This document shows, piece by piece, positions 5,999-50,253 of a stretch of DNA of 64,000 nt (its first letter is position 1; each line of letters starts with the position of its first letter). The position numbers were made by a program, and so were the translations under genes. Origin of the DNA: Pusillimonas sp. TS35 (GTDB taxonomy: Bacteria > Pseudomonadota > Gammaproteobacteria > Burkholderiales > Burkholderiaceae_B); NCBI RefSeq assembly GCF_009857885.1, contig NZ_WWER01000004.1:248001-312000 (forward strand), written 5' to 3'. The notes beneath the pieces are model-generated. The model searched no databases. It saw only the letters and a program-made list of their open reading frames with translations, and was not told the DNA's origin.

Positions 5999-6652
5999 TT
6001 ATTCGACGACTGTCGCCTTCTCGATCACCACGTCTGTCACCGGAACGTCTTGATGAAAGCCCTTGCTGCCGGTTTGCACGCCCTTGATCTTATCGACCAC
6101 CTCGGTGCCTTCGACAACTTTGCCGAACACGGCGTAGCCCCAGCCGTTAGGCGTGGGGGCGGTGAAATTGAGAAAGTCGTTGTCGGCCACGTTGATGAAG
6201 AACTGCGCGGTGGCCGAGTGCGGATCGGCCGTACGGGCCATGGCCAGCGTGTAGCGTTCGTTCTTCAGGCCGTTGTTGGCTTCGTTCTCGATGGGGGCGT
6301 GTGTTGGCTTTTGCTTCATGCCTGCTTCGAAGCCACCACCCTGGATCATGAAGTTATTGATGATCCGGTGAAAAATGGTGCCATCGTAGAAGCCTTCCTT
6401 GACATAAGTAAGAAAGCTTTCGACGGTTTTGGGCGCCTTTTCTGCGTTCAGTTCAATCAGGATATCGCCCTGGCTGGTTTGCAGGCTGACGCGGGGAGAT
6501 GTGCTCATAGAGGTACCTTGGTTGGATGAGGTTGGCGCGGCCTGCCCGGCCCCGCTGAAGAACAGCGCCGGCAGCGCCGCGCAAACAACGATGCTCAGAA
6601 CGGCCGCCGGCCGGGCGAGCATGCGGGTGGAGTGTACTAGGAAAGTATTCAA
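5999..6652 (-). CDS. Cyclophilin-type peptidyl-prolyl cis-trans isomerase, probably exported
   Basis: The cyclophilin domain (about residue 50 to the end, with [13 protein letters not shown] and the core [11 protein letters not shown]) catalyses proline isomerisation. The frame starts at TTG 6652, which overlaps the upstream TPR gene's stop (TTGA), or at ATG 6622, which yields a clean hydrophobic leader ending GAGQAA. A third start at about 6508 would give a cytoplasmic PpiB-like form without leader. I favour an exported protein of 207-217 aa, but two forms are possible. It is translationally coupled to the TPR gene and followed by lpxH. Confidence 0.88.
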
Positions 6653-44102: not shown

Positions 44103-45134
44103 ATGAACAAAACGACCAGCCGCTACACCATTGCCGATGTGGCGCGTTATGCGGGCGTATCGAAGGCGACCGTGTCGCGGTTCCTGAACCATCGCGATAC
44201 CTTGCTGTCGGCAGAGATCGCCCGCCGCGTCGAGGCGGCGATCGAAGAGCTCGGTTACGTGCCCAGCCCGATGGCGCAGGCACTCAAACGCGGCCGCTCC
44301 CGGCTGATCGGTCTGGTGGTGGCTGACATCGCCAATCCATACTCGGTCGCGGTGCTGCGCGGCGCCGAACTCGCTTGTCGGCAGGCCGGCTACCTGGTCA
44401 TGCTGTTCAACCTGGGCAACGAAAGCGAGCGCGAGAGCGCTGGGCTGCGTGCGCTGTCGTCCTACAAGGTCGAGGGCTTTATTCTCAATACGATGGGGCA
44501 TGACACGGGCTCATTGCTAGAGGCTGCCACCCACGGCCGGCCAGTGGTACTGGTCGATCGCATGCATCCGGGCCTGAATGTTGACTTCATCTCGCTCGAT
44601 AACGCGCAGGCGGTCGGCGAAGGCGTGCGGCATCTGCGAGAGTCGGGCTACCACGATCTGTTGCTGGTTACCGAACCTTTGGGTGCGGTCAGTTCCCGCC
44701 TGGAGCGCTCGCAGGTATTTGAAACACTGGTGCACGAGCAAGCCGATGTGCTGCGCGGATCACGCTACGAAAGCCCGGATGATGACGATCCAGGTCTGGT
44801 GGCCGCGCTGCGCGCGCTGCGGCGCCGCGCGGGCAAGAATCGCATGCCAGCGGTCCTGGCCGCCAATGTGGTCATCACGTTGCGCGTCATTGCTGCGATT
44901 GAAAAACTTGGCTGGCGGCTGGGTGCGCAGGTAGGCTTGGTCGGCATAGACGACGCCCGATGGGCACCCTATATCGGGCCCGGCATTACAACCATCGCAC
45001 AGCCTACCGATCGCATCGGCGAACGTGCGGCTGAATGCTTGCTGCAACGCATAGGCGGCCTGTCGGGCCCCGCGCGAGCAATACGATTGCCAGGTACGCT
45101 GATGGTACGCGGCTCGACTACCCGGCAAAAATAA
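44103..45134 (+). CDS. ptxS: LacI-family regulator, PtxS-like (2-ketogluconate regulator)
   Basis: A 343-aa LacI/GalR repressor. ATG 44103 is used; the frame upstream to 43857 is a shadow of zwf. The HTH is TIADVARYAGVSKATVSRFLN at about residues 9-28, with the hinge helix SPMAQALKRGRSRLIGLVV. The periplasmic-binding-like domain runs to the end. Assignment to PtxS rests on context: a perfect TGAAACCGGTTTCA palindrome 31 bp after its stop, identical to the operator reported for Pseudomonas PtxS, and a downstream operon with kinase and reductase genes like those of the kgu system. Confidence 0.78.
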   Translation: MNKTTSRYTIADVARYAGVSKATVSRFLNHRDTLLSAEIARRVEAAIEELGYVPSPMAQALKRGRSRLIGLVVADIANPYSVAVLRGAELACRQAGYLVMLFNLGNESERESAGLRALSSYKVEGFILNTMGHDTGSLLEAATHGRPVVLVDRMHPGLNVDFISLDNAQAVGEGVRHLRESGYHDLLLVTEPLGAVSSRLERSQVFETLVHEQADVLRGSRYESPDDDDPGLVAALRALRRRAGKNRMPAVLAANVVITLRVIAAIEKLGWRLGAQVGLVGIDDARWAPYIGPGITTIAQPTDRIGERAAECLLQRIGGLSGPARAIRLPGTLMVRGSTTRQK

Positions 45135-45165
45135 ATGCTAGAATTTTTGCTTTATTATCTAAACC

Positions 45166-45179
45166 TGAAACCGGTTTCA
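45166..45179. promoter_or_regulatory. PtxS-type operator TGAAACCGGTTTCA
   Basis: A perfect 14-bp palindrome between the LacI-family gene and the ABC transporter operon. It equals the sequence published as the PtxS recognition site. A TATTAT hexamer just upstream (about 45153-45158) could be a -10 element, so a bound repressor would block transcription start. Binding itself is inferred. Confidence 0.85.
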
Positions 45180-45256
45180 AAGGCGCAAGCGACCGATACA
45201 AGGTATTCTTGATTCACGCGCGGCGCTTGTGCCGATTCAGCCGGATACCAGCAAAC

Positions 45257-45928
45257 GTGAACTACGACTTTCAGTTTGGCCCCGTCTTCGACGCCTGGCC
45301 GCTGCTGCTCCATGGCACCTGGATGACCATCCAGCTTTCATTCCTTGCCATGGCGCTGGGGCTGCTTGTGGCTGTGGGGTGCGCATGGGGCAAGACTTCC
45401 GGCCCCGGGCCGCTGCGCTGGCTGATCAACGTCTATATCGAGATCATCCGCAATACGCCGTTTCTGGTCCAGCTTTTCTTTTTCTTTTTCGCTCTTCCGG
45501 CTGTGGGTGTGCGCTGGTCGCCCTATATGGCGGCGCTGGTGGCCATGGTTTTCAACCTTGGCGCCTACGCCACAGAGATCGTGCGCGCCGGCATTGAGTC
45601 CATACCCAAAGGGCAGATTGAGGCCGGTCTGGCGCTTAACCTGTCACGCGTCGAGATTTTCCGTTTTGTGATTCTCAAGCCGGCGCTGCGGGCCATCTAC
45701 CCGGCGCTTACCAGCCAGTTCATCCTGCTCATGCTGGCGTCTAGCGTCGTATCCGTCATTTCGGCCGATGATCTCACTTCGGTAGCCGCCAATCTGCAGT
45801 CCCAGACATTCCGCAGCTTTGAGATCTACATCGTCGTCACAGGCATCTACCTGGCGCTGACACTGGCGTTTTCCTACATGTTCCGCCTTGTGTTCCAGCG
45901 CACCCTCAACTACCCGGACCGTCGATAA
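45257..45928 (+). CDS. Polar-amino-acid-type ABC permease 1
   Basis: A 223-aa HisM/GlnP-family permease. GTG 45257 (VNYDFQFGPVFDAWPLLLHG) is chosen; the open frame extends back over the operator to 45035, but that part has no membrane protein character. The EAA-type loop (EAGLALNLSRVEIFRFVILKPALR) that contacts the ATPase is present. It is the first gene behind the PtxS-type operator. By context it moves a sugar acid such as 2-ketogluconate, although the family usually carries amino acids. Confidence 0.85.
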   Translation: MNYDFQFGPVFDAWPLLLHGTWMTIQLSFLAMALGLLVAVGCAWGKTSGPGPLRWLINVYIEIIRNTPFLVQLFFFFFALPAVGVRWSPYMAALVAMVFNLGAYATEIVRAGIESIPKGQIEAGLALNLSRVEIFRFVILKPALRAIYPALTSQFILLMLASSVVSVISADDLTSVAANLQSQTFRSFEIYIVVTGIYLALTLAFSYMFRLVFQRTLNYPDRR

Positions 45929-46581
45929 TGCGCACCTTTGGTTATACCGACTTCTGGTTCATTCTCGAAGCGGCCCAGTGGACCGTCCTGCTTTCGGTCA
46001 TCGCCTTCATCGGCGGCGGCATTGTCGGCCTGCTCGTTGCGCTGGGGCGCACAGCTGAAAACCGTGCGGCGCTGGCCCTGTCCACGGGTTTTATCCAGAT
46101 ATTCCGCGGGACGCCGCTGCTGCTTCAGTTGTTTCTGGTGTTTTTTGGTGCACCGGTGCTGGGTTTTGAAATCAACCCGTGGGTGGCGGCGGCGGTTGCG
46201 CTCACGCTCAACAGCGGGTCCTTCTTGGGCGAAATATGGCGTGGCTGCATACAGGCCATACCGCGCGGGCAATGGGAAGCCGCCGATGCGCTGGGGCTGT
46301 CATACCGCGACAAAATGCGTGACGTAGTGCTGCCGCAGGCGCTCAAGATCGCTGTGCCGCCCACAGTGGGCTATATGGTGCAGATCGTCAAGGGCACGTC
46401 GCTTGCCGCCATCATTGGCTTTACCGAATTGACGCGCGCTGGGCAAATCATCAATAACGCCACCTTCCAGCCCATGCTAGTGTTCACGGTAGTAGCTGCA
46501 ATCTATTTTGTGCTGTGCTGGCCGCTGTCCCTTTATGCCGGCCATCTCGAGCGCCGGTTGGCGGTGTCCCGCGCGCGCTGA
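45928..46581 (+). CDS. Polar-amino-acid-type ABC permease 2
   Basis: A 217-aa partner permease of the same family, with five hydrophobic segments and the coupling loop EAADALGLSYRDKMRDVVLPQALK. Its ATG overlaps the preceding stop by one base (TAATG), so the two subunits are translationally coupled and likely form a heterodimer. Confidence 0.92.
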   Translation: MRTFGYTDFWFILEAAQWTVLLSVIAFIGGGIVGLLVALGRTAENRAALALSTGFIQIFRGTPLLLQLFLVFFGAPVLGFEINPWVAAAVALTLNSGSFLGEIWRGCIQAIPRGQWEAADALGLSYRDKMRDVVLPQALKIAVPPTVGYMVQIVKGTSLAAIIGFTELTRAGQIINNATFQPMLVFTVVAAIYFVLCWPLSLYAGHLERRLAVSRAR

Positions 46582-46646
46582 GGCTTTTGCTCCGGGATAC
46601 GCCAATGGCGTGTTCCGGTTTTTCATGTCTACGGAGACAACAGACT

Positions 46647-47450
46647 ATGTTTTCAACACTGAAAATCCGAAATTTTGTTGCCGGGTCGCTGCTCATGAGC
46701 GCTGCGCTGGCCATTGGCGCGTCCCCTGTCGCTGCCGAAACCCTGGACACGGTCAAAGAAAAGGGTGTGCTTACCATCGGCATGCTGGTCGATTTTCCGC
46801 CGTACGGCATCCTCAATGGTGAAAACAAGCCTGATGGGTATGATGCGGACGTGGCGCGCACCTTGGCCAAAGATTTGGGCGTCAAGCTCAACATTGTCCC
46901 CGTGACTGGCCCCAACCGCATCCCTTTCCTGCTTACCGGCAAAGTGGATATGCTGATTGCCTCGCTGGCCATCACGCCCGAGCGCGCCAAACAAGTGCAA
47001 TTTTCCCATCCGTATTCCGCAGCGCAGATCGTGATGTTCGGCCCCAAGGACACCAAGATTGTCAAGCCTGAGGATCTCTCGGGCCTGCGTATTGGCGTGG
47101 CCCGCGCGAGCACGCAAGATATCACCGTGACAGAGATCGCTCCCAAGGATGCCAACATCCGCCGCTTCGACGATGACGCATCGGCCATGCAGGCGCTGCT
47201 GGCAGGCCAAGTCGATGCAATCGGCTGCTCCACTACCGTCGCCGCGCAGATCGCCAAGCGCGCGCCCGACCGCTTCGAGAATAAGTTTGTGCTGCGCCAG
47301 CAAGAAATGGCAGTTGCATTGCGTCCCAATGAGCCCAACACGCTTAAGGCGGTTAACGAGCTGGTCGACAAGAACATCCAGGATGGCACCCTCAACAAGC
47401 TATACGAAAAATGGCTGGGTACGCCGCTGCCGGACCTGAAGAAGTCGTAA
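46647..47450 (+). CDS. Periplasmic binding protein of the ABC importer (SBP_bac_3)
   Basis: A 267-aa family 3 solute-binding protein. GGAG lies 10 bases before ATG 46647, and a signal peptide ends at about residue 30 (SPVAA). The mature protein shows GVLTIGMLVDFPPYG, the GYDADVARTLAKDLG lobe and IRRFDDDASAMQALLAGQVDA. Members usually bind amino acids through a conserved Arg and Asp; the ligand here is inferred from the operator to be 2-ketogluconate or a related acid. The operon order is permease, permease, binding protein, ATPase. Confidence 0.92.
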   Translation: MFSTLKIRNFVAGSLLMSAALAIGASPVAAETLDTVKEKGVLTIGMLVDFPPYGILNGENKPDGYDADVARTLAKDLGVKLNIVPVTGPNRIPFLLTGKVDMLIASLAITPERAKQVQFSHPYSAAQIVMFGPKDTKIVKPEDLSGLRIGVARASTQDITVTEIAPKDANIRRFDDDASAMQALLAGQVDAIGCSTTVAAQIAKRAPDRFENKFVLRQQEMAVALRPNEPNTLKAVNELVDKNIQDGTLNKLYEKWLGTPLPDLKKS

Positions 47451-47469
47451 TGCCCAGGCTGGAACACGT

Positions 47470-48240
47470 ATGACCGACACACAAACAGCCCAGCCCGGCG
47501 CCGGTGATCCGATCATCGGCATCAAGGGCCTGAACAAATGGTATGACCAATTCCATGTCCTGACCGACATCGATCTGAGCGTGGGGGCCGGCGAGCGCAT
47601 TGTCATTTGCGGGCCGTCGGGTTCAGGCAAGTCGACGCTGATACGCTGCATCAACGGCCTGGAGCGCGTCCAGCAGGGCAGCATTGTCGTAAATGGTATC
47701 GATCTTACGGCCAATACTCGCAATATCGATGCAGTGCGGCAAGAAGTCGGCATGGTGTTCCAGCAGTTCAATCTGTTTCCGCACATGACGGTGTTGCAGA
47801 ATTGCATGCTGGCGCCCATGCGTTCGCGGGGTGTATCAAAAGCCGATGCGGAGGCCATGGCGATGAGATACCTCACCCGCGTGCGCATTGGCGACCAGGC
47901 ACTGAAGTATCCCAGCCAGCTCTCGGGCGGGCAGCAGCAGCGCGTGGCCATCGCACGTGCGCTGTGCATGACGCCCAAGATCATGCTGTTCGACGAGCCC
48001 ACGTCGGCGCTCGATCCGGAAATGGTCAAGGAAGTGTTAGATACCATGATAGGCTTGGCCGACGACGGCATGACGATGCTGTGTGTGACGCATGAAATGG
48101 GTTTTGCGCGCAGCGTTGCAGATCGCGTTATCTTCATGGCCGATGGCAAGATCGTCGAGCAGGCGCCGCCGGACCGTTTCTTCGGTGATCCGCAGCACGA
48201 GAAAACCCGCAACTTCCTTGGCCAGATCCTGAATCATTAA
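47470..48240 (+). CDS. ABC importer ATP-binding protein (GlnQ/HisP type)
   Basis: A 256-aa ATPase: Walker A GPSGSGKST near residue 48, Q-loop FQQFNLFPHMTV, signature LSGGQQQRVAIARAL, Walker B IMLFDEPTSALDPE and the H-loop VTHEMGFAR. All motifs are intact. It completes the polar-amino-acid-type importer and is followed after 26 bp by the sugar kinase gene. Confidence 0.95.
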   Translation: MTDTQTAQPGAGDPIIGIKGLNKWYDQFHVLTDIDLSVGAGERIVICGPSGSGKSTLIRCINGLERVQQGSIVVNGIDLTANTRNIDAVRQEVGMVFQQFNLFPHMTVLQNCMLAPMRSRGVSKADAEAMAMRYLTRVRIGDQALKYPSQLSGGQQQRVAIARALCMTPKIMLFDEPTSALDPEMVKEVLDTMIGLADDGMTMLCVTHEMGFARSVADRVIFMADGKIVEQAPPDRFFGDPQHEKTRNFLGQILNH

Positions 48241-48266
48241 TCTTCCTTACTCATTCCACGCACGCA

Positions 48267-49211
48267 ATGAATAACGCAATTGATGTGGTCACCTTCGGCG
48301 AAGCGATGATGCTGCTGGTGGCGGACCGGCCCGGCCCAATCGAAGATGCACAGATGTTCCACAAGCGCACGGCGGGCGCAGAAACCAATGTGGCCATCGG
48401 CCTGTCCCGTCTGGGCTTGCGCGTGGGGTGGGCCAGCCGGTTGGGTAATGATTCCATGGCTCGCTATTTGTTGACCGCCATGCGTGGTGAAGGCATAGAC
48501 TGCACGCACGTCGTCTGCGACGCGTCGCAGCGCACGGGTTTCCTGTTCAAAGGGCGCGTTATCGATGGCAGCGACCCTCCGATTGAATATCACCGCAAAG
48601 GTTCGGCCGCCAGCACCATGCAGCCTGGTGATATCGATGCGGGCTGGCTGTGCGCGGCCCGCCATTTGCATGCCACAGGTGTTTTTGCCGCCGTGGCGCC
48701 CAATTGTTATGAAACCTCTCGCCGCAGCATGGCGCTAATGCGCGAAGCTGGCAAAACCATTTCGTTCGATCCTAATCTGCGCCCTACGCTCTGGGCTTCC
48801 GAAGCGGCGATGCGGGCGGGCATCAATGCCCTGGCAGGCATGGCCGATTGGATATTTCCGGGTCTTGCAGAAGGCCGGCTGCTTACTGGGCTCGATACAC
48901 CAGAGGACATCGCACGCTTCTACAGAGCGCAGGGCTCGAGCTTGGTTGTCATCAAGCTGGGCGCCGAAGGTGCGTACTATGACAATGGTGATGAGCAGGG
49001 CTACGTACCTGGCGTTCCCGTCGAGCACGTCGTCGATACCGTGGGCGCGGGCGACGGCTTTGCCGCCGGCGTCATCAGCGCGCTGCTCGAGGGCCAGCCG
49101 TTGCGCAGGGCCGTTGCGCGTGGTGCGTGGATAGGTGCGCGTGCGGTCCAGGTGCTTGGCGATACCGAAGGCCTGCCTACGCGCCAGGAGCTCGACGCGG
49201 CCGGCTGGTAA
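48267..49211 (+). CDS. PfkB-family sugar-acid kinase (KdgK/KguK-like)
   Basis: A 314-aa ribokinase-fold kinase. The start VVTFGEAMMLLVAD and the GAETNVAIGLSRLGL segment are typical of 2-keto-3-deoxygluconate and 2-ketogluconate kinases; the anion hole and catalytic base lie in DTVGAGDGFAAGV. In the known kgu pathway KguK phosphorylates 2-ketogluconate, which KguD then reduces to 6-phosphogluconate. The reductase-like gene follows 73 bp later. KDG as substrate is the main alternative, given eda nearby. Confidence 0.88.
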   Translation: MNNAIDVVTFGEAMMLLVADRPGPIEDAQMFHKRTAGAETNVAIGLSRLGLRVGWASRLGNDSMARYLLTAMRGEGIDCTHVVCDASQRTGFLFKGRVIDGSDPPIEYHRKGSAASTMQPGDIDAGWLCAARHLHATGVFAAVAPNCYETSRRSMALMREAGKTISFDPNLRPTLWASEAAMRAGINALAGMADWIFPGLAEGRLLTGLDTPEDIARFYRAQGSSLVVIKLGAEGAYYDNGDEQGYVPGVPVEHVVDTVGAGDGFAAGVISALLEGQPLRRAVARGAWIGARAVQVLGDTEGLPTRQELDAAGW

Positions 49212-49284
49212 ACGGCACGCCGGTCCGACACAATCCCACGCCGGTGGCTGTGCCGCCCGCCGGCCTTTCTTGAAAAGGTTTGCC

Positions 49285-50253
49285 ATGGAACGCAAGCAGG
49301 TATTGGTGTACAGGGCATTGCCGCCAGCGCAGCTCGCACGCTTACAGGCTGTCGCTGACGTCATCCAGGCGGATCCTCGCGATCCTGCGCAGCTTGGCGC
49401 GTTTCACGATGCGCTGGCGACCGCGGACGGCCTGATCGGTTCAAGCTACCGGATCGACGACATACTGCTTGATCGCGCGCCAAAGCTGAAAGCCATCTCC
49501 ACGATATCGGTCGGTGTCGACCAGTTCCCGCTCGAATCGCTCGCCCGACGCGGCATCACCTTGTGCCATACCCCGGGCGTGCTCACCGAAACTGTGGCCG
49601 ACCTGCTGTTTGCAATGATACTGGGCACCAGCCGGCGTATCGTCGAACTAGGCCGTTATGTGCAGCAGGGCCGCTGGAAGAAAAACCTCGGTGATGACAT
49701 GTTTGGCTGGGATGTCTATGGCAAGACGGTGGGTATCCTGGGATATGGGCGCATCGGTCAGGCGCTTGCGCGCCGCGCTGCGCTGGGCTTCGACATGCCC
49801 GTTCTCTATCATTCGCGTCGTCTGGTCGACAGCGGCCTGCCCGACGGCAGGGCGCGCGCGGCCGGCTTCGAAGAGGTTCTGCGCGAATCCGATTTTGTGG
49901 TCGTGCTGTTGCCGCTCACCGATCAGACACGCGGCCTGATCGGTGCGAAAGAGTTGGCGCTGATGAAGCCCGAGGCCATCCTGATCAATGGCGCCCGCGG
50001 CCCTATCGTGGACGAAGATGCATTGCTGGATGCGCTGGACCGCGACCGCTTGCGCGGCGCAGGCCTGGATGTGTTTAATGTTGAGCCTTTGCCGCTGGAT
50101 TCGCCGCTACGCGATCACCCCAAAGTGATGGCGCTGCCGCACGCCGGTTCGGCCACGCACGAAACGCGTGCCGCCATGGCACGCATGGCGGTCGACAACC
50201 TGCTGCTGGCGCTGGAAGGCAAACCGCCTCTGGCGGCTTATCCCTTGGCGTAA
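49285..50253 (+). CDS. D-2-hydroxyacid dehydrogenase, 2-ketogluconate reductase-like
   Basis: A 322-aa NAD(P) enzyme. AAAAGG lies just upstream of ATG 49285. The nucleotide motif is LGYGRIGQALARRA; catalytic residues lie in NGARGPIVDED (Arg), the AGLDVFNVEPLP stretch (Glu) and LPHAGSATHETR (His). It resembles the GhrB/TkrA/KguD group, which reduces 2-keto sugar acids or their phosphates. As last gene of the PtxS-type operon it likely converts 2-keto-6-phosphogluconate to 6-phosphogluconate. It overlaps the convergent glycosyltransferase gene by 16 bp. Confidence 0.9.
   Translation: MERKQVLVYRALPPAQLARLQAVADVIQADPRDPAQLGAFHDALATADGLIGSSYRIDDILLDRAPKLKAISTISVGVDQFPLESLARRGITLCHTPGVLTETVADLLFAMILGTSRRIVELGRYVQQGRWKKNLGDDMFGWDVYGKTVGILGYGRIGQALARRAALGFDMPVLYHSRRLVDSGLPDGRARAAGFEEVLRESDFVVVLLPLTDQTRGLIGAKELALMKPEAILINGARGPIVDEDALLDALDRDRLRGAGLDVFNVEPLPLDSPLRDHPKVMALPHAGSATHETRAAMARMAVDNLLLALEGKPPLAAYPLA

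What the first reader, a model, noticed from the sequence alone, without database searches (positions are those of the whole stretch)
44103..50253. PtxS-type operator controlling a 2-ketogluconate operon with an ABC importer instead of an MFS carrier
Seen: a LacI-family gene, then the perfect palindrome TGAAACCGGTTTCA at 45166-45179, then two HisM/GlnP-type permeases, a family 3 binding protein, a GlnQ-type ATPase, a PfkB kinase and a GhrB/KguD-like reductase, all on one strand. Known: PtxS in Pseudomonas binds this sequence and controls kgu genes for 2-ketogluconate uptake (by an MFS protein), phosphorylation and reduction. Inference: here a polar-amino-acid-type ABC importer does the uptake, which would be a new substrate class for that transporter family.
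Basis: partly seen in the sequence, partly recalled or inferred. Interest (0 to 1): 0.8.

Follow-up and report, generated by a model that had tools for sequence, protein, structure and literature searches.

The report
Ketogluconate operon with ABC importer
A bacterium appears to take up the sugar acid 2-ketogluconate with an importer from a family best known for amino acids, in place of the usual single-protein carrier, and the same swap is seen in many related bacteria.

Summary
Window 44103-50253 is one + strand cluster: LacI-family regulator, exact TGAAACCGGTTTCA (45166-45179), two HisM/GlnP-type permeases, family 3 binding protein, GlnQ-type ATPase, PfkB kinase, GhrB/KguD-type reductase. 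The 14-mer occurs exactly once in the 4.1 Mb genome (0.007 expected). Comparison supports the reading. Of the 80 best named loci found through the kinase, 27 have a KguT-type MFS carrier beside it, 36 this ABC type, 4 a second ABC type, 13 none recognised, none two types; regulator, kguE, kinase and reductase mostly stay. All 20 Pseudomonas loci among them carry the same 14-mer. Published primers for the purified C. necator 2-ketogluconate kinase match a locus with the second ABC type. The binding protein keeps the carboxylate Arg but has Ser where amino-acid-binding relatives have Asp. Against: no binding, transport or growth data; four of 30 orthologous importers in the family lack the operator; this genus lacks edd and kguE, and two congeners lack the reductase too, so 2-keto-3-deoxygluconate remains possible. 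Verdict: new variant of a known kind.

The parts
44103..45134 (+). LacI-family regulator, PtxS-type
   Evidence: PF00356 + PF13377; 44-47% identical to the LacI beside kguE-kguK-kguT in 20 Pseudomonas loci; recognition helix SKA as in Pseudomonas
45166..45179 (.). PtxS-type operator TGAAACCGGTTTCA
   Evidence: exact match to the published PtxS site (PMC3402500, PMC5902321, passages); only exact copy in the genome; in 24 of 27 family loci it lies 25-188 bp before the start of the permease 1 match
45257..45928 (+). ABC permease 1, HisM/GlnP type (GTG start)
   Evidence: PF00528; HEQRo_perm_3TM 103 bits, cutoff 42.2
45928..46581 (+). ABC permease 2
   Evidence: PF00528; HEQRo_perm_3TM 97.5 bits, cutoff 42.2
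46647..47450 (+). Family 3 binding protein; proposed 2-ketoaldonate binder (Arg113 kept, Ser195 at the alpha-amino Asp position)
   Evidence: PF00497; motif comparison; AlphaFold2 model, mean pLDDT 86.5, closest to amino-acid-binding proteins
47470..48240 (+). ABC ATPase, GlnQ type
   Evidence: PF00005; GlnQ model 312.9 bits, below its 379 cutoff
48267..49211 (+). PfkB kinase, KguK type
   Evidence: PF00294; 67% identical to the kinase of L127, whose ends match the PCR primers of the purified C. necator H16 KguK
49282..50253 (+). D-2-hydroxyacid dehydrogenase, KguD/GhrB type
   Evidence: PF02826; GhrB model 357.4 bits, below its 492 cutoff; 50-54% to the reductase in 19 of 20 Pseudomonas kgu loci (L147 showed no hit)

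Best explanation
This is a PtxS-type 2-ketogluconate (kgu) operon in which a polar-amino-acid-type (PAAT) ABC importer replaces the MFS carrier KguT. Proposed working: without inducer the LacI-family repressor sits on 45166-45179, in the presumed promoter region of the importer operon; 2-ketogluconate releases it. The binding protein captures 2-ketogluconate (or a close 2-ketoaldonate) in the periplasm by its carboxylate, and the two permeases and the ATPase bring it in. The PfkB kinase phosphorylates it and the KguD-type reductase makes 6-phosphogluconate. In this genome, which has no edd above the family cutoff, that most likely drains through the short NAD-type 6-phosphogluconate dehydrogenase found elsewhere. 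Shown here: gene order, operator, its conservation, the transporter exchange, the motif differences. Inferred: promoter, effector, substrate, direction of transport, kinetics.
For: Exact operator once in the genome, upstream of the operon in 26 of 30 family genomes with the orthologous importer, and present in 4 of the other 121. Conserved order. The 80 best of 529 named relatives of the kinase: 36 ABC type 1, 4 ABC type 2, 27 MFS, 13 none recognised, 0 with two types near the kinase; the 20 Pseudomonas loci among them all have the 14-mer. Recognition helix and operator go together: exact 14-mer in 72 of 80 loci with SKA, 0 of 15 with SKT or GKT (at least four genomes counted twice). On a quick kinase tree the three transporter labels need 3 changes and type 2 sits in two separate places. 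The C. necator H16 kinase, kcat/Km 16,770 for 2-ketogluconate and 7,370 for KDG (PMC6651773), matches by its primers an operator-ABC-kguE-kguK-kguD locus. No KguT homologue at E<=1e-20 in the own genome. SBP: Arg113 in every row of the motif table, Ser195 in place of Asp. 6PGDH above cutoff in the own genome.
Against: No binding, transport or growth data. Four of 30 orthologous importers in the family lack the exact operator (G009, G049, G110, G134); in the stretches held for G009, G049 and G110 no LacI match was found, and G134 has only a 29% LacI and no kinase match. The genus lacks edd above cutoff and kguE, and G080 and G102 have no reductase at E<=1e-50. NCBIfam ranks a KDG/KDGal kinase model first for the kinase, though far below its cutoff (179.9 vs 400 bits). 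The binding protein's nearest solved structures bind amino acids, and other, non-kgu paralogues lack the Asp too. The C. necator genome of L127 has 19 MFS matches to KguT at E<=1e-20, the best 37% identical, so another carrier is not excluded there. No sigma-70-like promoter was found at 45000-45300. PF13618, a gluconate dehydrogenase subunit, was not found in the genome, so the cell may not make 2-ketogluconate itself.
Confidence: 0.76

Rival explanations
1. The importer and kinase serve mainly 2-keto-3-deoxygluconate (KDG) in this genus: KDG in, phosphorylated to KDPG, cut by Eda. The reductase is then a side or legacy function.
For: The five genus g1 genomes searched lack edd above cutoff and kguE; eda is kept beside the operon in the window and the four congener loci; G080 and G102 also lack the reductase. 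C. necator KguK phosphorylates KDG at about half the efficiency. A 68% identical kinase in a Rhodoferax MAG sits with a ManD-type mannonate dehydratase, which would feed KDG.
Against: The window keeps the reductase, which KDG would not need; the operator and helix are those of the 2-ketogluconate-responsive PtxS; kguE accompanies the importer in 28 and the reductase in 32 of 36 named type 1 loci; the genome has another exit for 6-phosphogluconate.
Confidence: 0.14
2. The importer is an ordinary amino-acid importer that merely neighbours the kgu enzymes; 2-ketogluconate enters by another carrier.
For: Subunit families and nearest solved structures are amino-acid type.
Against: The importer genes lie directly behind the operator in 24 of 27 family loci; no KguT homologue at E<=1e-20 in the own genome; MFS and ABC never stand together beside the kinase in the 80 named loci; the alpha-amino Asp is replaced in every type 1 protein of the motif table.
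Confidence: 0.07
3. The locus handles another sugar acid (for example 2-keto-gulonate, gluconate or a plant-derived aldonate).
For: C. necator KguK also acts weakly on 2-keto-gulonate. Sister importers sit beside genes like those of 3-deoxy-rhamnonate degradation.
Against: 2-keto-gulonate was about 60-fold poorer for KguK; the operator is identical to that of the Pseudomonas kgu loci.
Confidence: 0.03

Closest known systems
Pseudomonas ptxS-kguEKTD operon
   Same: Same 14-mer operator, PtxS-type repressor with the same SKA recognition helix, KguK- and KguD-type enzymes
   Different: MFS KguT replaced by a four-gene ABC importer; kguE absent in this genus; one exact operator, between lacI and the importer, where 19 of the 20 Pseudomonas loci have two, flanking the LacI gene
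Cupriavidus necator kguK locus (L127; strain A5-1)
   Same: Operator, LacI, PAAT-type ABC, kguE, kguK, kguD; kinase activity proven for strain H16 (PMC6651773)
   Different: A different PAAT lineage (SBP 38% identical, SBP gene first); a second, near-perfect operator copy
PAAT ABC importers (TC 3.A.1.3; number recalled)
   Same: Two HEQRo-type permeases, family 3 SBP, GlnQ-type ATPase
   Different: Catabolic sugar-acid context; Ser in place of the alpha-amino-binding Asp
KDG kinases (EC 2.7.1.45)
   Same: PfkB family; best NCBIfam score is a KDG kinase model
   Different: Score far below that model's cutoff; in one clade with the C. necator kinase

Membership tests
PtxS regulator | LacI-family protein encoded beside kgu genes | tested here: met
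PtxS regulator | Site 5'-TGAAACCGGTTTCA-3' in front of the kgu operon | tested here: met
   published site in PMC3402500 and PMC5902321, passages
PtxS regulator | DNA-reading residues of the recognition helix | tested here: met
   SKA in window and Pseudomonas; the 15 SKT/GKT loci lack the exact site
PtxS regulator | Released from DNA by 2-ketogluconate | not testable with these tools
   reported for Pseudomonas PtxS
kgu operon | 2-ketogluconate kinase KguK | tested here: met
   by sequence only: 67% to the C. necator kinase matched by the published primers, same starred clade; activity of the window protein not measured
kgu operon | KguD reductase | tested here: met
   by sequence only; missing in 5 of 27 family loci
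kgu operon | KguT MFS carrier | tested here: not met
   no match at E<=1e-20 in the own genome; place taken by ABC genes, hence filed as a variant
kgu operon | KguE | tested here: not met
   no match at E<=1e-8 in the own genome and 4 congeners; present in 22 of 27 family loci
PAAT ABC importer | HEQRo permease domain, SBP_bac_3, GlnQ-like ATPase | tested here: met
PAAT importer specific for amino acids | Pocket with Arg for the carboxylate and Asp for the alpha-amino group (roles recalled) | tested here: not met
   Arg113 kept, Asp replaced by Ser195
KDG kinase | Passes the NCBIfam equivalog cutoff | tested here: not met
   179.9 vs 400 bits

The most novel reading that the evidence does not exclude
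There is a sugar-acid branch of the polar-amino-acid ABC importers. Its binding proteins keep the carboxylate-gripping Arg but have lost the alpha-amino-gripping Asp, and at least two of its lineages independently replaced KguT in PtxS-controlled 2-ketogluconate operons, while sister lineages serve other aldonates (3-deoxy-rhamnonate/fuconate type, mannonate).
Probability: 0.5. Interest if true: 0.6.

Novelty: new variant of a known kind. Interest (0 to 1): 0.47.

Why it matters
It would give a likely substrate, and a readable pocket rule, to a set of importers of amino-acid-transporter type in Alcaligenaceae and Comamonadaceae (Variovorax, Acidovorax, Polaromonas and others). It would also explain how bacteria without KguT take up 2-ketogluconate, a sugar acid that other bacteria release when oxidising glucose. 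An ATP-driven route with a binding protein, in place of an MFS carrier, suggests scavenging of dilute 2-ketogluconate (inference).

Tried and rejected
Rejected: chance palindrome; neighbouring but unrelated amino-acid importer; spread of one single ABC cassette (type 1 and type 2 binding proteins form separate clades). In that SBP tree the program warned that long branches meet between the outgroup and type 2, and the outgroup I named wrongly held one type 1 row, so only the separation of the two types is used. The forks that put non-kgu paralogues beside type 1 have middling support (86/90 and 84/86).

Led nowhere: sigma-70 promoter scan; paper searches for a 2-ketogluconate ABC importer or a PtxS regulon survey. 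The class-wide kinase search found, besides the own genome, one of 369 at E<=1e-60. Thirteen of the 80 named loci show no recognised transporter: in some the kinase is at a contig end (L109, L135), in others it has other surroundings (L111, L120, L129, L130 looked at); L122 has the type 1 binding protein but no permease or ATPase match. For the four family genomes with the exact 14-mer but no orthologous importer (five sites), only hits to my query set were looked at.
Full report
Observation. The cluster is as described. On the + strand it holds lacI 44103-45134, TGAAACCGGTTTCA at 45166-45179, two permeases (GTG 45257-45928; 45928-46581), binding protein 46647-47450, ATPase 47470-48240, PfkB kinase 48267-49211 and reductase 49282-50253. 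The exact palindrome occurs once in the 4.1 Mb genome, plus one site with one mismatch on another contig, inside an alcohol-dehydrogenase-like reading frame (named by reading). From the window's base composition 0.007 exact copies would be expected. Upstream and divergent are genes read as zwf and pgl, and glk; downstream on the - strand is eda. The organism is in the same genus as Allopusillimonas soli: the contig of the congener G013 has the length of the named record behind L089.

Conservation of the operator. Of 151 genomes of the family, 30 carry the exact 14-mer (31 sites), against 3 for the reversed control. Thirty genomes carry an orthologue of the importer's binding protein at 63% identity or more. 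By positions, the site lies upstream of that operon in 26 of these 30; four of the other 121 genomes carry it elsewhere (five sites). Four orthologues lack it: G110, G009 and G049, where no LacI match was found in the stretches held, and G134, where LacI is 29% identical and the kinase was not found. In 24 of 27 family loci the site lies 25-188 bp before the permease 1 match. Published work gives this sequence as the PtxS site in front of ptxS, kgu and gad in Pseudomonas, with 2-ketogluconate as effector (PMC3402500 and PMC5902321, passages read). In P. plecoglossicida the kgu operon is kguE-kguK-kguT-kguD, and loss of KguT stopped 2-ketogluconate use (PMC11678583, passages).

Regulator and operator go together. 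Across loci with a LacI-family protein at least 36% identical to the window's, the exact site is present in 72 of 80 whose recognition helix reads SKA (window and Pseudomonas alike) and in 0 of 15 reading SKT or GKT. At least four genomes are in that set twice, as an unnamed and as a named locus (equal contig lengths). Five of the eight SKA loci without the exact site have a near variant TGAAANNNNTTTCA; the other three have none in the DNA held.

Transporter exchange. By matches within 7 kb of the kinase on its strand, 36 have this ABC type, 4 a second PAAT-type ABC set (Cupriavidus twice, Herbaspirillum, Janthinobacterium), 27 a KguT-type MFS carrier (20 Pseudomonas, 7 others) and 13 none recognised. 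None has two types. kguE is present in 28 of 36, 4 of 4 and 27 of 27; a KguD-type reductase in 32, 4 and 26; lacI in 30, 4 and 27; the exact operator in 28, 2 and 20. The 20 MFS loci with the operator are the 20 Pseudomonas loci. On a quick kinase tree of 104 rows the three transporter labels need 3 changes, the least possible being 2, and type 2 falls in two separate places. Type 1 and type 2 binding proteins are separate, well-supported clades; some non-kgu paralogues group with type 1 at middling support. The simplest reading is that MFS, ABC type 1 and ABC type 2 do the same job and have replaced one another.

Biochemical anchor. PMC6651773 (parts 1 and 2 of 4 of the text, and passages) reports the purified kinase of C. 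necator H16: kcat/Km 16,770 per M per s for 2-ketogluconate, 7,370 for KDG, 246 for 2-keto-gulonate. Its primers match both ends of the kinase in L127, from C. necator A5-1, with one and zero mismatches. That kinase lies in an operator-SBP-permeases-ATPase-kguE-kguK-kguD cluster. A word search of the paper's main text found neither 'ABC' nor 'transporter'. The window's kinase is 67% identical to the L127 kinase. The same genome has 19 other MFS matches to KguT, at most 37% identical, so a second carrier is not excluded there.

Binding protein. In the motif table of 88 extracted proteins plus the window (some genomes twice), Arg113, which aligns with the carboxylate-binding Arg of amino-acid SBPs, is kept in every row. 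At window Ser195 every type 1 protein has Ser and every type 2 protein Pro. Two distant paralogues in Variovorax, and the five solved ancestral or arginine-binding chains aligned, have Asp. That Arg and Asp bind the alpha-carboxylate and alpha-amino groups is recalled knowledge. The other non-kgu paralogues in the table lack the Asp too, so its loss marks a wider branch and is not proof of 2-ketogluconate. Among these, L062 and L063 lie beside an SDR and a relative of 2,4-didehydro-3-deoxy-L-rhamnonate hydrolase (439 and 436 bits, cutoff 500), and L066 beside an FGGY kinase and an HpcH/HpaI aldolase. This suggests that the branch as a whole handles sugar acids. AlphaFold2 gives a good model (mean pLDDT 86.5) whose closest solved structures are amino-acid-binding proteins and relatives.

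Pathway in this genome. No kguT match at E<=1e-20; no kguE match at E<=1e-8 in the own genome and four congeners. edd is not above cutoff in these five genomes, though it is in the three genomes of other genera tested. A short NAD-type 6-phosphogluconate dehydrogenase (405.8 bits, cutoff 297.2) lies beside a second zwf-like gene, so 6-phosphogluconate can be used. Two congeners (G080, G102) and three other genomes (G030, G033, G065) lack a reductase match at E<=1e-50. In G080 and G102 the set left is importer, kinase and eda, which would fit KDG better than 2-ketogluconate. This is the main reason for less than full confidence.

Novelty. Ten full-text searches listed no title or abstract beginning that assigns 2-ketogluconate to a polar-amino-acid-type ABC importer, and the passages or parts that I opened in six papers (PMC2842291, PMC3402500, PMC5902321, PMC6651773, PMC9007349, PMC11678583) do not either; the other listed papers were not opened. 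The library holds open-licence papers only. A prediction in a regulon database (RegPrecise comes to mind; recalled, not checked) cannot be excluded. I therefore rate it a new variant of a known kind.

Noticed in passing
G000 and congeners G013, G052, G080, G102 (genome-wide): No edd above the family cutoff, although glk, eda and zwf- and pgl-like genes lie around the operon in the window; the three genomes of other genera tested have edd.
   Followed up: partly
L177:410-2880 (own genome C11): Short NAD-type 6-phosphogluconate dehydrogenase next to a second zwf-like gene, apart from the one in the window.
   Followed up: partly
L111:2976-10773 (Rhodoferax MAG): GntR-like gene, two SBPs, a third PAAT-type ABC set, ManD-type mannonate dehydratase, a 68% identical kinase and an SDR: possible mannonate/KDG operon with a PAAT importer.
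   Followed up: partly
L062:3192-8750, L063:5512-10297, L066:7106-12435: Paralogous PAAT importers near the type 1 branch beside 3-deoxy-rhamnonate-hydrolase-like and SDR genes, or FGGY kinase and HpcH/HpaI aldolase genes.
   Followed up: partly
L165:6462-6475 and 6591-6604: Two exact copies of the 14-mer, 129 bp apart start to start, upstream of a LacI-family gene only 26% identical to the window's: the site may not be exclusive to PtxS-type proteins.
   Followed up: no
L127 and L125, 22 bp (start to start) upstream of the exact operator: Second, near-perfect operator copy (TGAAACCGGTTTCC) in Cupriavidus, so the site is tandem there.
   Followed up: no
L072:1979-9772 (G515): LacI, 53% identical kinase and KguD-like reductase followed by genes that read as a TRAP transporter and kduI/kduD (by reading, not by a family search): possibly a further transporter exchange.
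   Followed up: no
L068:7081-7094 (own genome C18:20080): One-mismatch operator copy inside an alcohol-dehydrogenase-like reading frame, next to SDR- and aldehyde-dehydrogenase-like genes; may be chance.
   Followed up: partly
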